From: Pseudoalteromonas xiamenensis
GTDB lineage: Bacteria; Pseudomonadota; Gammaproteobacteria; Enterobacterales; Alteromonadaceae
Direction: 5' to 3'
NCBI RefSeq assembly: GCF_030994125.1
Contig: NZ_CP099917.1
Span: 1,364,001-1,428,000 of the forward strand
DNA length: 64,000 nucleotides
The notes below the pieces were generated by a model. The model saw nothing but the letters and a program-made list of their open reading frames with translations, had not been told where the DNA came from and made no database searches. Both the position numbers and the translations under genes were made by a program. This document shows, piece by piece, positions 25,013 to 29,910 of this stretch. Position 1 is the stretch's first letter; every line of letters starts with the position of its first letter.

Positions 25013-27901
25013 TTACTTAAAGACATCCTCAACGTTCATCACTTCGATGTTTTTAGCCGGAATACCTAGAGGGTATTTCGCAATTTCAGAGTCTTCGGTC
25101 ACTAACTCTGCTGGCTTTTCCGTATTGTACGTCATTGGCGAGGTTTGTTCTTTGGCAAGACGAGCTTGCATGTCTTTCGCATCACCCGTGATGAACACAT
25201 AGTGCATGTTTTCAGTTTGTAAGTTTTCACGGATCACTCGGTTTACGTCTTCAACGGTGAGACTCGCTAGTTGCTTACGAACATATTCAACGAAACTCTC
25301 TGTGTTGTAGAACTCACTATCAAGTGCATAGCCCAGTTGACGGTCTTGACTCGCAACAAGTTGTGGAACGAAATTCGTCAGGAAGTTACGTGTGGCCTCA
25401 AAATCGGATGAAGACATACCCTCTTTAATCAATTTATCCAACTCAAACAAAGCAACGCGAGACGCAAACTGCGCGTCGTTGTTTGAACGAAGTGGACGCA
25501 ACCACACTTGGAAAATTTGTTCCGAGCGACCTAAATTTGCATCAGGTTTAGTTTGGAACATACCACGTGGGAAATACTCGATATACGCATAGTCACCATA
25601 GTTCATGCCTCGAACTTGGCGAATTCGTTGATACAGGAAACTATTTGAACTGCGGTGTTCACCAAAGTACGAACGCACAAGCCATAGCGCTGTCCAATCT
25701 TTACTTGAACGCACGGTATCAATTGGGAAACCAAATGAAACCGCGGTCGATTGAGCACTTTTCTCTACGATTGTTGCGTGTTTGCCCTTTAATGTAGGTG
25801 CATCTGGCACACTTAAGCGAGATTCATTGCCAAGCGGTAAGCGCGTTAAGTCCGTCAGCATTTTTGCTTTTACATCGCTATTCAGTGCCCCAGTGATCCC
25901 AAGGTTTAGTTTCGCTTGTGTAAGCTCTGCACGATAGAAAGCTTTAACGTCATCTAGCGTTAAGGCTTCTAAATCGGAAAGATCGCCTAAGTTGTATGAA
26001 GCGTAAGGATGACCTTGATAAAGTGCGCTATACAGCACTTCTTTACCTAGTTCTTCATCGTTTGATGCTTTCAAACCTGATTTGATGTTATCAATCAGCT
26101 CCTTCTTCAAACGATTGAAATCATCTTCTCTGAAGCCAGGATTAAGAAGTTGTTCAGAGACCAGCGCGTACCATTTGTCCGCGTTATCTTTGTGCACTCG
26201 TCCACGAAATGACAGCATTTCTTTATCGATTTGATATGAAAAACTACCCGCGATCGGATACAACGCCTTTTGAATTTCTTTGAATGATTTCGTTTGGCTT
26301 CCGCCTTTGGCAATCATTGCCGCCGTCAGTGCCGCTACCCCTTTCTTACCTTTAGGGTCGGCTGCAGCACCGGTGTAGAAAAGGAAGTTAACATCCACCA
26401 ACGGTGATGCATTGCTCTTGTCTAGTACCTTGAAATGACGCTCGGTCGGCTTGCTTGCCTGCACAACTAAGTTTTCAAGCGACACTTCTTTATCAAAACC
26501 CGCGACCTTATCAAGAGCTGACATGGTCACGGTAGTACGGCTCGAATCAACGAAATATTCGTTTGCAATACGACGAATATCTTCTGCGGTTACCGCATCT
26601 GAGCTCGCGTACAGTTCGTTAATCACTTCTGGATTACGTTCAAAATGCATGTAGCTTGCAAGTACATCAGCAATCGCCTGAGAAGAATCAAGACCATTGA
26701 TAAAGCTGTATTTCAAATTTGATTTAAGCGCAGCAAGTTTTTCTTCTGAGACAAGTTCTGTACGAGCTTTAGCGTAAGTGCGATTAATCGCATCACGTGC
26801 TACCGCTAAGTCACTTTCTTTATCTACTTTGACAAAAACGTGTATTAAACCAGTGTCTTTAGTCTCAGGATTATAAGTAAACATCTGACTTGCGATCTGC
26901 TTTTCAACAACTAGCTCTTGGTACAATTCAGAATTTTCCGAAAAATACAGCTGAGAAATTAAATCCAAAGCAGAGCGGTCTTTTTTCGTTGGGATCCAAG
27001 GCGTACCTTTATAAGAGACCAACAGCCAATGTCCTGGAAGTCCATCATATTTCTCATGAACATAACGCGGCGCAGCTTGCTTAGGCTCTTTAGGAATATC
27101 GACTGAGTAATTGCCTTTTTTCCATGCTCCCCAATGTTTTTTCACCATTGCGATCGTTTCTTTCGGGTCAACATCACCCACGATAACTAGCGATACGTTT
27201 TCTGGTTTGTAGAAATGCTTGAAGAATTCTTGGCCGTAAGCCATTTGATCCGGCATCGCCTCAATGTCTTCAAAAAAGCCCATTGTCGTGTGTTTATAGG
27301 TATGTTTGTCGAAAGCTTCTTTTCTAACCGCACTTAACAGCTTACGGACAGGACTTGCATTATTTTTTAGGTATTCACCTTTTACCGTTAACGCTTCTGT
27401 CCTGAACTGTTCTTCTGAGTACGTTAAATCTTGGAAGATATCCGCTTGGATTTCGAGCACTTTATCCAAATGTTCTTTAGAAAAGTTAAGGTGGTAATTG
27501 GTGTAATCATTCGTTGTATAGGCACGATTATCGACGCCTGAATTCTTTAAAATATCTGAATAGACATCTTGTGGAAACTTCTTCGACCCTTTAAACATCA
27601 TATGTTCAAAGAAATGCGCAAAACCGGTTTTACCCGCTTCGACTTCATTTCTAGAACCTACGGAAACAGGAATTTGTAGCGAGACTACGTCTGGATAGTC
27701 AGTTTTAACGACCATGACTCTAAGGCCATTATCTAACTCTTCCAACACATAATCTTGAGAGAAGACTTTATTGCTTGAGGCTGCAGCCACCATTTGGCTT
27801 GCATCATTATTCTTTGTTGTCGCACATCCGCTAAGCGCGAGTGCAACCGCCATACTTGTTGCTAATAATTTGAAATTCATAGAACTCAACTTTGTTATCA
27901 T
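25013..27901 (-). CDS. M16-family zinc metalloprotease, lipoprotein
   Basis: A 962-residue two-part insulinase-family (M16) protease. Counting from the ATG at 27901 (AGGG just upstream), a lipoprotein signal ends in LALSGC with Cys26 as the lipidated residue, so it is anchored in an envelope membrane. The inverted zinc motif HFFEH is at 96-100 with the distal Glu near 176, in the first half. The second half has the M16 fold without zinc ligands, as usual. Family members degrade peptides in the periplasm or process peptide precursors. It is divergent from the tandem peptide genes across 399 bp. Starts at 27880 and 27943 are also possible. Confidence 0.9.
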   Translation of the reverse strand: MITKLSSMNFKLLATSMAVALALSGCATTKNNDASQMVAAASSNKVFSQDYVLEELDNGLRVMVVKTDYPDVVSLQIPVSVGSRNEVEAGKTGFAHFFEHMMFKGSKKFPQDVYSDILKNSGVDNRAYTTNDYTNYHLNFSKEHLDKVLEIQADIFQDLTYSEEQFRTEALTVKGEYLKNNASPVRKLLSAVRKEAFDKHTYKHTTMGFFEDIEAMPDQMAYGQEFFKHFYKPENVSLVIVGDVDPKETIAMVKKHWGAWKKGNYSVDIPKEPKQAAPRYVHEKYDGLPGHWLLVSYKGTPWIPTKKDRSALDLISQLYFSENSELYQELVVEKQIASQMFTYNPETKDTGLIHVFVKVDKESDLAVARDAINRTYAKARTELVSEEKLAALKSNLKYSFINGLDSSQAIADVLASYMHFERNPEVINELYASSDAVTAEDIRRIANEYFVDSSRTTVTMSALDKVAGFDKEVSLENLVVQASKPTERHFKVLDKSNASPLVDVNFLFYTGAAADPKGKKGVAALTAAMIAKGGSQTKSFKEIQKALYPIAGSFSYQIDKEMLSFRGRVHKDNADKWYALVSEQLLNPGFREDDFNRLKKELIDNIKSGLKASNDEELGKEVLYSALYQGHPYASYNLGDLSDLEALTLDDVKAFYRAELTQAKLNLGITGALNSDVKAKMLTDLTRLPLGNESRLSVPDAPTLKGKHATIVEKSAQSTAVSFGFPIDTVRSSKDWTALWLVRSYFGEHRSSNSFLYQRIRQVRGMNYGDYAYIEYFPRGMFQTKPDANLGRSEQIFQVWLRPLRSNNDAQFASRVALFELDKLIKEGMSSSDFEATRNFLTNFVPQLVASQDRQLGYALDSEFYNTESFVEYVRKQLASLTVEDVNRVIRENLQTENMHYVFITGDAKDMQARLAKEQTSPMTYNTEKPAELVTEDSEIAKYPLGIPAKNIEVMNVEDVFK

Positions 27902-28300
27902 TGTCCCTTCATAGCACCCAATTTCCGCAAAACGTTCAAACAATTTGCGATGAATTGAATGCCATGCTCCTCGTTCTTCAACCTCACATTATGCCCCAAA
28001 ATAGGAAACTTACCGAAAAAGCTGCGCTAAATTATGTAAACAATTGTTTTGATGTAAATCTCAATTCTCTCGAACACCTTCGCTTTAATTCACAAAGGAA
28101 AATAATAAAAAAAACCTCTCTGCCCCAATGACAAAAAATTCATTTAATTACAGCTAGATAAGGACATAGATGCAATAAAAGGTAAATTTATTATTTAATT
28201 TTGTTAATTTTTAATGAATAAAATATTGACTAAATTATTCTTCAATGGCACGTTAGTTCAAGAAGTAATCACTTCGTTAACCTATAAAAGGAAATTCACT
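27902..28300. other. AT-rich divergent intergenic region
   Basis: About 400 bases between the M16 protease and the first peptide gene. It should hold both promoters. A TTGACT hexamer lies at 28226-28231 on +, but no convincing -10 sits at the right distance. An in-frame extension of peptide 1 back to 28214 exists but lacks a ribosome site and has no counterpart in copy 2. Confidence 0.5.
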
Positions 28301-28456
28301 ATGTTGAAAATCAATAAGAAGAAAATGAAAGAATTGTCTAACTCAGTTAAGGCAATGCCAATCGAGCAAACCCCAGCAGTAGCAGGTGGCTGGGCTCCTA
28401 CACAAGATGGCACAGGTAACATGACGTGCGTTGTTGAAACGTGTAAGAAAAAATAA
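28301..28456 (+). CDS. Double-glycine leader peptide, copy 1 (putative RiPP or secreted peptide precursor)
   Basis: A 51-residue peptide. Residues 1-30 are lysine-rich and amphipathic, beginning MLKINKKKMKELSNS and closing with the motif TPAVAGG, which resembles leaders cut after Gly-Gly. Residues 31-51 form the putative core: it starts WAPTQDGTG, has Cys43 and Cys48 (spacing CX4C) and ends in three lysines. The ribosome block AAAAGGAAATTCAC directly precedes the ATG. Copy 2, 59 bases on, encodes exactly the same peptide with 21 silent changes. No modifying enzyme or peptidase-containing exporter is encoded in the window. Function is unknown. Confidence 0.85.
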   Translation: MLKINKKKMKELSNSVKAMPIEQTPAVAGGWAPTQDGTGNMTCVVETCKKK

Positions 28457-28515
28457 TTTTATTGTCGATTCTCCAAGTAGATAGCAACCTCTGAAAAATA
28501 AAAAGGAAATTCACC

Positions 28516-28671
28516 ATGTTAAAAATCAATAAAAAGAAAATGAAAGAGCTTTCTAATTCAGTTAAAGCTATGCCAATTGAACAAACGCCTGCGGTGGCAG
28601 GTGGTTGGGCACCTACACAAGATGGTACAGGCAACATGACGTGCGTTGTTGAAACCTGCAAGAAAAAGTAA
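28516..28671 (+). CDS. Double-glycine leader peptide, copy 2 (identical product)
   Basis: It encodes the same 51 residues as copy 1. Twenty of 51 codons differ, all synonymously (for example ttg/ctt for Leu12 and tgt/tgc for Cys48). The 14-base ribosome block AAAAGGAAATTCAC is also conserved, while the rest of the 59-base spacer is not. The pair therefore looks like an old tandem duplication kept by selection on the protein. A strong terminator follows at once, so both copies probably share one transcript. Confidence 0.85.
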   Translation: MLKINKKKMKELSNSVKAMPIEQTPAVAGGWAPTQDGTGNMTCVVETCKKK

Positions 28672-28683
28672 TCGGTCCTTGTT

Positions 28684-28710
28684 AGCAAACTGAGCTTGTC
28701 TCAGTTTGCT
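28684..28710 (+). terminator. Terminator of the tandem peptide genes
   Basis: A perfect 11-bp stem AGCAAACTGAG/CTCAGTTTGCT with a five-base loop followed by TTTTTCC, 12 bases after the stop of copy 2. Confidence 0.92.
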
Positions 28711-28872
28711 TTTTCCTCATCCCCCATTTTTAACGTAATTTTCCATTCAATTTCTGTCCCAAGCTTTATGTGTCTTCAGCTTTAACCAATTGAAATCTCT
28801 TACTCTTCCCTCTTTATTGCGCAAATCAACATGAACAAAATTCATAATCATTGAAATTCTTTCACCAAAAAA

Positions 28873-28941: not shown

Positions 28942-29910
28942 ATGGCGCTTTCACTCGAAGAGAAAATTTTAGACCCTAATCAGGGGGTCTACTTGATTGG
29001 TACCACACCACCAAAACACGGCACAGACGACGAGCAATTAAAAAGTATTGCTGAAAAACTGTTAGGTCGCCTGCATGAAATTGAATATGACGGTGTGGTG
29101 ATTTATGACATTCAAGATGAAAGCAGCCGCACTGAGCTGCCACGTCCATTCCCTTTTAAGCAAACCGTTGACCCACGTAAATACAGTCAACTTTTGCGAG
29201 AAATTTCACATTTAGACGTCATAACTTATAAGAGTGTGGCACAGCGAGGTAAAGCGGAATTTAGTGAATGGCTAAACGAAACTAAGCGCGAATATGGCCT
29301 AAAAAACCTTGTATTAGTGGGGAGTCCATCGTCGCACGGAGACATAAAACTGTCTTTAAATGACGCATATCAAACGCTTGAGTCCCATGATGAGTCGTTC
29401 TTTTTAGGCGGTGTGACGATTGCTGAACGTCATGCAAACAAGCGTAATGAACACCAACGTCTCATTGAGAAAACGGCACAAGGTTGTGAGTTCTTTATTT
29501 CTCAAGCCGTTTACAACGCACAAGCGACGATTGATTTAATCACTAGCTATGCAAGAACCTGTCGCCAACAAGGGATTGAGCCAAAGCGTATCATTTTAAC
29601 GTTTACACCTTGTGGTGGTGAAAAAACACTTACGTTTATGGAGTGGCTAGGCATTTCCGTTCCAGAGGCAACAAAATGGCGGATCTTAGATTCAAAGGAA
29701 CCTCTAAGTGAATCCATCCGTATTTGTCGAGAAAACCTCGATTTAATCCTAAAAAGTTGCTCACATTTAGATGTACCGCTTGGTTTAAACATTGAAAGCT
29801 TAACCAACCGCAAAGAAGAAATTGACGCATCCATGAATCTTTATCGATTATTGAAAGCGACGATGGAGCTTTGCCTTGCTGAAAAGCAAATATCAGCCGT
29901 ATCAGCTTAA
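28942..29910 (+). CDS. Methylenetetrahydrofolate reductase-like protein (MetF superfamily)
   Basis: A 322-residue TIM-barrel protein of the methylenetetrahydrofolate reductase superfamily, with FFLGGVTIAERH and CEFFISQAVYNA corresponding to the folate/FAD region. It is divergent enough from classical MetF to be a paralogue; the exact reaction is not certain. The MetJ-type operator just upstream supports a role in methionine or one-carbon metabolism. The frame is open back to 28891, but that ATG lies inside the operator. The ATG at 28942 with GAGGAA close by was chosen, and 28933 is an alternative. Confidence 0.8.
   Translation: MALSLEEKILDPNQGVYLIGTTPPKHGTDDEQLKSIAEKLLGRLHEIEYDGVVIYDIQDESSRTELPRPFPFKQTVDPRKYSQLLREISHLDVITYKSVAQRGKAEFSEWLNETKREYGLKNLVLVGSPSSHGDIKLSLNDAYQTLESHDESFFLGGVTIAERHANKRNEHQRLIEKTAQGCEFFISQAVYNAQATIDLITSYARTCRQQGIEPKRIILTFTPCGGEKTLTFMEWLGISVPEATKWRILDSKEPLSESIRICRENLDLILKSCSHLDVPLGLNIESLTNRKEEIDASMNLYRLLKATMELCLAEKQISAVSA

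What the first reader, a model, noticed from the sequence alone, without database searches (positions are those of the whole stretch)
28301..28671. Tandem genes for one identical 51-residue double-glycine peptide
The two genes differ at 21 nucleotides in 20 codons, all silent, and encode the same 51 residues. This is strong purifying selection on leader and core alike. The leader ends in TPAVAGG and the 21-residue core starts WAPTQ, holds Cys43 and Cys48 and ends in three lysines. The shape is that of a RiPP or bacteriocin-like precursor, or a secreted signal peptide. The 14-base ribosome block is also kept, while the spacer is not. The peptide family is not one I recognise.
Basis: partly seen in the sequence, partly recalled or inferred. 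Interest (0 to 1): 0.85.

Follow-up and report, generated by a model that had tools for sequence, protein, structure and literature searches.

The report
Scattered twin lanthipeptide precursor genes
Two adjacent genes make the same 51-residue peptide, which appears to be one of about a dozen raw materials, most of them scattered, for a single ring-forming peptide factory elsewhere in the same bacterial genome.

Summary
In detail: genes at 28301-28456 and 28516-28671 differ at 21 sites in 20 codons, all silent. Their 30-residue leader belongs to a family spread through this genome: 12 profile matches at E<=0.01, 9 of them outside the cluster, at 8 loci. Three more lie in a class I lanthipeptide cluster about 0.76 Mb away, which holds the genome's only LanB, two LanC and two C39 peptidase-exporters. 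Of 99 genomes examined, the 29 with the leader family are exactly the 29 with LanB. Shared ancestry explains much of that: 3 changes on one gene tree, plus three genomes outside the genus. Matches run from 1 to 75 per genome, 745 in all. Leaders are alike, cores differ, and 107 of 111 collected cores carry Cys. Best reading: a class I lanthipeptide substrate modified in trans, a class I analogue of the class II prochlorosins. Class I lanthipeptides of Pseudoalteromonas are already in print (pseudorosins, PciA). My ten paper searches showed no scattered class I repertoire. Modification, export and function are inferred.

The parts
28301..28456 (+). Precursor gene 1 (51 aa plus stop): leader residues 1-30 ending TPAVAGG, core residues 31-51 WAPTQDGTGNMTCVVETCKKK
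28516..28671 (+). Precursor gene 2, same 51-residue product, 21 silent differences from gene 1
28286..28299 (+). Shine-Dalgarno block of gene 1 (AAAAGGAAATTCAC), family-typical
28501..28514 (+). Shine-Dalgarno block of gene 2, same 14 bases
28684..28710 (+). Terminator-like hairpin followed by a T run, after gene 2: suggests one two-gene transcript (inferred)
27890..28825. Approximate lineage-specific insert holding the pair: almost no blastn match to the same interval of 56 other same-genus genomes; in 57 of 59 other same-genus genomes the gap between the flanking genes is 237-521 nt, against 1059 nt here
25013..27943 (-). Left flanking gene, M16 (insulinase-type) peptidase; ordinary neighbour
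28942..29910 (+). Right flanking gene, conserved 322-aa protein; no Pfam match, weak sub-cut-off likeness to a methylenetetrahydrofolate reductase domain; ordinary neighbour

Best explanation
The pair encodes one precursor of a class I lanthipeptide system whose enzymes lie about 0.76 Mb away and act in trans. Proposed steps: (1) both genes, probably co-transcribed, give the same 51-mer. (2) The shared leader (consensus MKLKLNKKKxKxLSxDxKxLPxxxTPxVAGG) is recognised by the single LanB, which dehydrates Thr in the core (Thr34, 38, 42, 47; there is no Ser). (3) LanC adds Cys43 and Cys48 to the resulting dehydrobutyrines, forming up to two methyllanthionine rings. (4) A C39 peptidase-ABC exporter with its HlyD partner cuts after Gly-Gly and secretes a 21-residue cyclic peptide with a KKK tail. 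Shown here: the genes, the leader family, its scatter, the intact enzyme set, the co-occurrence with LanB, and the fixed core. Inferred: steps 2-4, co-transcription, and that two copies serve dosage. The product is most likely a secreted peptide with one specific target (signal or antagonist), because the core took no replacement while its silent sites changed; which of the two cannot be told.
For: Own genome: leader paralogues. Cluster with LanB (PF04738 410.6 bits, PF14028 213.6 bits), two LanC (PF05147) with motifs GWCYG and CHG, two C39-ABC exporters each beside a HlyD gene; LanB matches NisB by sequence, E 1.5e-28. Co-occurrence in the same 99 genomes: a single-sequence search gives 29, the leader profile the same 29, LanB the same 29. 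C39 alone is in 65 of 99, 16 of them same-genus genomes without the leader family, 5 of those 16 with strong C39 matches (E<=2e-30). The LanB label needs 3 changes on a 60-row tree. In a sample of 394 genomes of the order, all 5 leader-positive genomes (E<=1e-4) have LanB at 222 bits or more, 3 of them outside the genus. Of 111 different collected proteins, 107 cores contain Cys and 101 at least two; Cys is 11.5% of core and 0.2% of leader. NCBI's class I leader model L1b gives weak hits (E<=1, best 0.00095) to 10 of 31 members.
Against: No transcript, peptide or modification was seen. NCBI leader models are never met at their cut-offs, and the window peptide itself does not hit L1b. 4 of 111 cores have no Cys. 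The co-occurrence rests on few separate events (3 changes in the genus, two lineages outside), not on 29. 11 of the 16 same-genus genomes with C39 but no leader have only weak C39 matches, so the case that LanB rather than export is the partner rests mainly on 5 genomes. No homologue of the whole core was found in the 99 genomes; three species share only its first residues WAP.
Confidence: 0.82

Rival explanations
1. The peptide is an unmodified double-glycine bacteriocin or signal exported by the C39 transporters; LanB modifies only some precursors of its own cluster.
For: The leader ends in a classical GG motif and two C39 exporters are present. The cluster holds many small GG/GA frames of other leader types, some without Cys, that may be exported unmodified. 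All 29 leader-positive genomes also have strong C39 matches.
Against: Five same-genus genomes with strong C39 matches and no LanB (G019, G026, G054, G056, G057) have no leader-family match, nor do 11 more with weak C39 matches. Scattered and in-cluster members share the leader. Collected cores are rich in Cys with Ser/Thr.
Confidence: 0.13
2. The pair is a leftover of a lanthipeptide cluster that once stood at this place; in three other genomes (G003, G017, G034) LanB lies 2.6-6 kb from the same right-hand neighbour gene.
For: Coordinates of LanB and the 322-aa gene in G003, G017 and G034; in G034 a family precursor lies just upstream of that gene.
Against: Both frames are intact with 21 of 21 changes silent, which is not decay. 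In 58 of 59 other same-genus genomes the interval between the flanking genes holds no such peptide, and in G003 and G017 the cluster lies on the other side of that gene. 137 of 150 listed family hits are not within 20 kb of LanB on the same contig, so scattered genes are usual in this family.
Confidence: 0.08
3. History only: the silent divergence reflects two alleles from different strains brought together by recombination rather than an old tandem duplication.
For: The insert was seen only in this genome of 60, yet the copies differ at 21 of about 31.5 silent sites, more than orthologues between species G036 and G044 (0.25-0.34 of silent sites).
Against: No other species with this core was found. 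GC3 of the two genes is similar, 0.43 and 0.37.
Confidence: 0.3

Closest known systems
Pseudorosins A-C and dehydratase PsfB, Pseudoalteromonas flavipulchra S16 (doi 10.1021/acschembio.3c00135, not held; named in a passage of PMC12819058)
   Same: Class I lanthipeptides of what is probably the same genus, with a LanB-type dehydratase (from the title in the reference list).
   Different: I saw only a citing sentence and the reference; I could not compare precursors or learn whether scattered precursors were noted.
PciA/PciC of Pseudoalteromonas citrea DSM 8771 (PMC9993889, passages seen)
   Same: Class I lanthipeptide of the genus, modified on expression in E. coli.
   Different: Shown in those passages as a gene cluster; no scattered family is mentioned in them.
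Prochlorosins/synechococsins, ProcM/SyncM (PMC10783134, passages seen)
   Same: One promiscuous enzyme, tens of precursors (29; [quoted passage not shown]
   Different: Class II LanM with Nif11 leaders in picocyanobacteria; here LanB plus LanC, a different leader, another phylum.
NCBIfam lant_leader_L1b (NF038158) and L1a (NF038153), class I lanthipeptide leaders
   Same: Weak matches within about the first 20 leader residues.
   Different: Always below the curated cut-off, so this is a distinct leader family.

Membership tests
Class I lanthipeptide system | LanB dehydratase with glutamylation and elimination domains | tested here: met
   PF04738 (profile 2-649 of 649) and PF14028 (1-255 of 255) in one 1047-aa frame; NisB matched by sequence. 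Which domain does which step is recalled.
Class I lanthipeptide system | LanC cyclase with zinc ligands | tested here: met
   Two LanC genes with GWCYG and CHG motifs; that these are zinc ligands is recalled from NisC
Class I lanthipeptide system | Precursor with leader and a core holding Ser/Thr and Cys | tested here: met
   Window core has 4 Thr and 2 Cys; 107 of 111 collected family cores have Cys
Class I lanthipeptide system | Precursor gene beside the enzymes | tested here: not met
   About 0.76 Mb from LanB. Not treated as disqualifying because the family co-occurs with LanB in 29 of 29 genomes; 13 of 150 listed hits lie within 20 kb of LanB
Class I lanthipeptide system | Lanthionine rings in the product | not testable with these tools
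   Needs mass spectrometry
NCBIfam L1b/L1a leader families | Score above curated cut-off | tested here: not met
   L1b: best 22.7 bits against a cut-off of 27, 0 of 99 genomes over it; L1a: 12.2 bits against 22
Prochlorosin (class II) | Nif11-type leader | tested here: not met
   No Pfam match and no Nif11 model among NCBIfam matches of the window peptide
Prochlorosin (class II) | LanM-type synthetase as the modifying enzyme | not tested
   No genome-wide LanM search was made; the cluster's LanC proteins reach 74 bits against a LanM cut-off of 304
Double-glycine peptides exported by C39 ABC transporters | Leader ending in GG plus a C39 exporter in the genome | tested here: met
   Leader ends AVAGG; two C39-ABC genes over the cut-off; cleavage itself not tested

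The most novel reading that the evidence does not exclude
A class I (LanB/LanC) counterpart of the prochlorosins: one enzyme set per genome serves up to 75 precursors, mostly stand-alone genes. Each core, once made, is held almost invariant by selection and only now and then replaced behind an unchanged leader, so the genome carries a library of fixed secreted ring peptides.
Probability: 0.6. Interest if true: 0.75.

Novelty: new variant of a known kind. Interest (0 to 1): 0.62.

Why it matters
Tools that look for lanthipeptide precursors only near the enzymes miss scattered ones: the survey PMC7268733 says its limit of seven genes either side of the LanC-domain gene left out distant prochlorosin genes (passage). 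If this reading is right, one bacterial genus holds hundreds of candidate class I precursors (745 profile matches in 29 genomes). In the one species pair measured, 11 of 13 cores are conserved, so they probably have specific jobs. What scattered lanthipeptide libraries are for then becomes testable in a marine genus for which genome editing is reported (PMC12819058, passages): one lanB deletion should silence the whole set.

Tried and rejected
Pfam and NCBIfam on the single peptide: nothing above cut-off; a weak FxLD lanthipeptide match (E 0.095) was treated as chance. Search of about 5.8 billion proteins: only the peptide itself, as two entries, one with 7 contigs and one with 1. A scan of named genomes gave two short matches, 20 residues in a Williamsia and 18 in a Chloroflexi MAG, judged spurious. 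A shared upstream motif beyond the Shine-Dalgarno block was sought in 110 upstream stretches by k-mer counts; none exceeded the shuffle maximum. Core conservation was first measured on 13 cross-species pairs picked by core similarity (leader 0.030 and core 0.028 replacements per site); since that choice favours conservation, it was redone on 13 syntenic gene pairs matched by flanking DNA. Reading the 29-genome match as 29 independent events was rejected; the hypergeometric figure printed is not used for that reason. Naming the host failed (one search gave one 79-base match in a cyanobacterial plasmid); 'Pseudoalteromonas' is my inference from the two-replicon layout and the known kin and comes from no call. 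Of 8 L1b genome matches, the one in G029 lies in a 550-aa frame and is probably chance. Structure prediction was not used.

Full report
CHECK OF THE OBSERVATION. Two genes at 28301-28456 and 28516-28671 (+) encode the same 51 residues, MLKINKKKMKELSNSVKAMPIEQTPAVAGG | WAPTQDGTGNMTCVVETCKKK. They differ at 21 sites in 20 codons, all silent; 21 of 21 silent under random substitution has a chance of about 4e-15. By most parsimonious paths the leader has 15 silent changes at 18.5 sites and 0 replacements at 71.5, and the core 6 at 13 and 0 at 50. A 14-base Shine-Dalgarno block is shared and a terminator-like hairpin follows gene 2. The repeat unit is 172 nt at 87% identity.

WHERE IT SITS. The pair lies between an M16 peptidase gene and a conserved 322-aa gene. 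In 58 of 59 other same-genus genomes the M16 gene was found upstream of the 322-aa gene with no such peptide between. In 57 of these the gap is 237-521 nt; in G055 it is 1562 nt, where the 322-aa gene has two copies. In the remaining genome, G034, no M16 match was found in the fetched stretch and a family precursor lies just upstream of the 322-aa gene. In the window the gap is 1059 nt, and about 27890-28825 has almost no match to the interval of 56 other genomes. So the pair sits in an insert seen only in this genome of the 60.

A GENOME-WIDE FAMILY. Searching the window's own genome (4.60 Mb in two contigs, the larger 3.68 Mb) found leader-sharing peptides elsewhere. A profile of 38 leaders (A2) finds 16 places at E<=10, 12 of them at E<=0.01 (the same profile in the 99-genome run counted 11). 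Three of the 12 lie in or beside one cluster and 9 at 8 other loci, one on the second contig. Two of those 8 loci are copies of one duplicated stretch, and the weakest two, on C2 and at 1196503, were not read. The cores read differ from one another.

THE ENZYMES. The cluster at C1:2155863-2180316 encodes a full-length LanB, two LanC, two C39 peptidase-ABC exporters each with a HlyD partner and an ATP-grasp enzyme. It also holds some 34 small frames with GG or GA near the N-terminus, picked by that very filter, so some may be chance. LanC motifs GWCYG and CHG are intact. It is the only LanB match in this genome, and it matches NisB by sequence. Its best plasmid-borne relatives, in Bacteroidota, are about 30% identical.

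CO-OCCURRENCE. In the same 99 genomes (60 same genus, 39 same order), the single peptide finds relatives in 29 at E<=0.01, the leader profile finds 29 and LanB is in 29. I compared the lists by hand and the three sets are identical. C39 alone is in 65 of 99, including 16 same-genus genomes without the leader family, of which 5 have strong C39 matches. A tree of the neighbour protein from 60 genomes needs 3 changes of the LanB label, so shared ancestry explains much of the count. The LanB carriers fall in a large group, the G003/G017/G034 group and G032, the latter two nested among LanB-less genomes. In a sample of 394 genomes of the order, 5 have the leader at E<=1e-4 and all 5 have LanB; three are outside the genus (G312, G397, G155). 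Three further genomes have distant LanB-like matches of 18-72 bits and no leader match. In G312, G397 and G155 the leader matches lie about 1.6-2 kb from LanB (cut by contig ends in G155), and the one G032 match listed lies 1.5 kb from it.

SCALE AND SCATTER. Profile matches at E<=0.01 run from 1 to 75 per genome, 745 in 29 genomes; in the two richest (G018, G013) not all candidates were scored, so those are lower bounds. Of the 150 hits listed (the listing was cut), 13 lie within 20 kb of LanB on the same contig. Many genomes are drafts, so distance across contigs is unknown there; in two-contig genomes such as G058, G055 and G028 listed hits lie hundreds of kb or more from LanB on the same contig.

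LEADER AND CORE. In 1500 random draws of pairs from the collected family, mean leader identity is 54% and core identity 20%. Among 111 different collected proteins, 107 cores have Cys and 101 have two or more; Cys is 11.5% of core and 0.2% of leader. From 16 stretches of G036 and 14 of G044, 11 locus pairs were matched by flanking DNA and 13 gene pairs from 10 of them were compared. For 11 gene pairs the cores have 13 replacements at 942 sites against 79 silent changes at 258. The other 2 have cores with 18 replacements at 52 sites and 15 at 105, while their leaders have none. So most cores are held fixed and some are replaced. The window pair fits the fixed mode. Among 11 different adjacent gene pairs in the earlier collection none has identical cores, and five with related cores have replacement fractions of 0.18-0.32 in the core. 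A four-gene array in G036 does hold two genes with identical cores and a third one residue off, so twin genes with one product are unusual in this family but not unique.

HOW IT MOST LIKELY WORKS. The leader is bound by LanB in trans, Thr residues are dehydrated, LanC closes rings on Cys43 and Cys48, and a C39 exporter cuts after GG. These steps follow from general knowledge of class I lanthipeptides and are inferred here. Two genes before one terminator-like site suggest a two-gene transcript and a dose effect (inference). Function is open; a secreted signal or antagonist with a specific target fits the fixed core.

COMPARISON WITH WHAT IS KNOWN. Class I lanthipeptides of Pseudoalteromonas are in print: pseudorosins A-C (a citing sentence and reference in PMC12819058) and PciA (passages of PMC9993889). 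Scattered precursor libraries are known for prochlorosins, class II (passages of PMC10783134). A genome survey limited itself to seven genes around the LanC-domain gene and says distant prochlorosins were missed for that reason (passages of PMC7268733). Passages of a review on promiscuous lanthipeptide enzymes (PMC12328550) do not mention the genus. The ten paper searches listed no paper that I could see describing scattered class I precursors; most subscription papers are not held, and I read no listed paper whole. NCBI's L1b leader model gives 8 sub-cut-off matches in 99 genomes, all 8 in LanB-positive genomes, one of them probably chance. I therefore call it a new variant of a known kind.

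LIMITS. No expression or chemistry data. The host name is inferred. The leader profile was built only from LanB-positive genomes, but the single-sequence search, not so trained, gave the same 29. Co-occurrence rests on about five lineages. Other modifying enzymes (LanM, YcaO, radical SAM) were not searched genome-wide.

Noticed in passing
L011 (G000:C1:2174372-2176020): Array of 13 tandem tiny GG/GA-leader frames with near-identical products in two groups (8 and 5), without Cys, beside the second C39 exporter; probably a separate peptide family.
   Followed up: no
L010 (G000:C1:2167197-2170955): MvdD-like ATP-grasp enzyme (below NCBI cut-offs) near five MHPFSL...GG peptides: possibly an ATP-grasp RiPP inside the lanthipeptide cluster.
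   Followed up: no
L251 and L267 (G036, G044): Syntenic precursor genes with identical leader protein and about 97% identical flank but largely different cores, as if the core alone was exchanged or hypermutated.
   Followed up: partly
L245 (G036:C173:475400-478200): Four tandem precursor genes, three of them nearly identical (4-9 nucleotide differences between them), two with the same core.
   Followed up: partly
L181, L182, L183 (G034, G003, G017): LanB lies 2.6-6 kb from the same conserved 322-aa gene that flanks the window pair, upstream of it in G034 and downstream in G003 and G017; a possible insertion hot spot.
   Followed up: partly
L004 and L005 (G000:C1:1044013-1047102 and 1168487-1171576): A precursor gene lies in a duplicated stretch of at least 3.09 kb, the copies differing at 52 of 3090 positions.
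   Followed up: no
L189 (G055:C1:2425200-2431100): The 322-aa neighbour gene is present twice in tandem in this genome.
   Followed up: no
window 28214-28300: The frame of gene 1 is open upstream to an ATG at 28214, predicted as an 80-aa protein on one public contig (P0002) with one residue differing; the Shine-Dalgarno block favours the start at 28301.
   Followed up: partly
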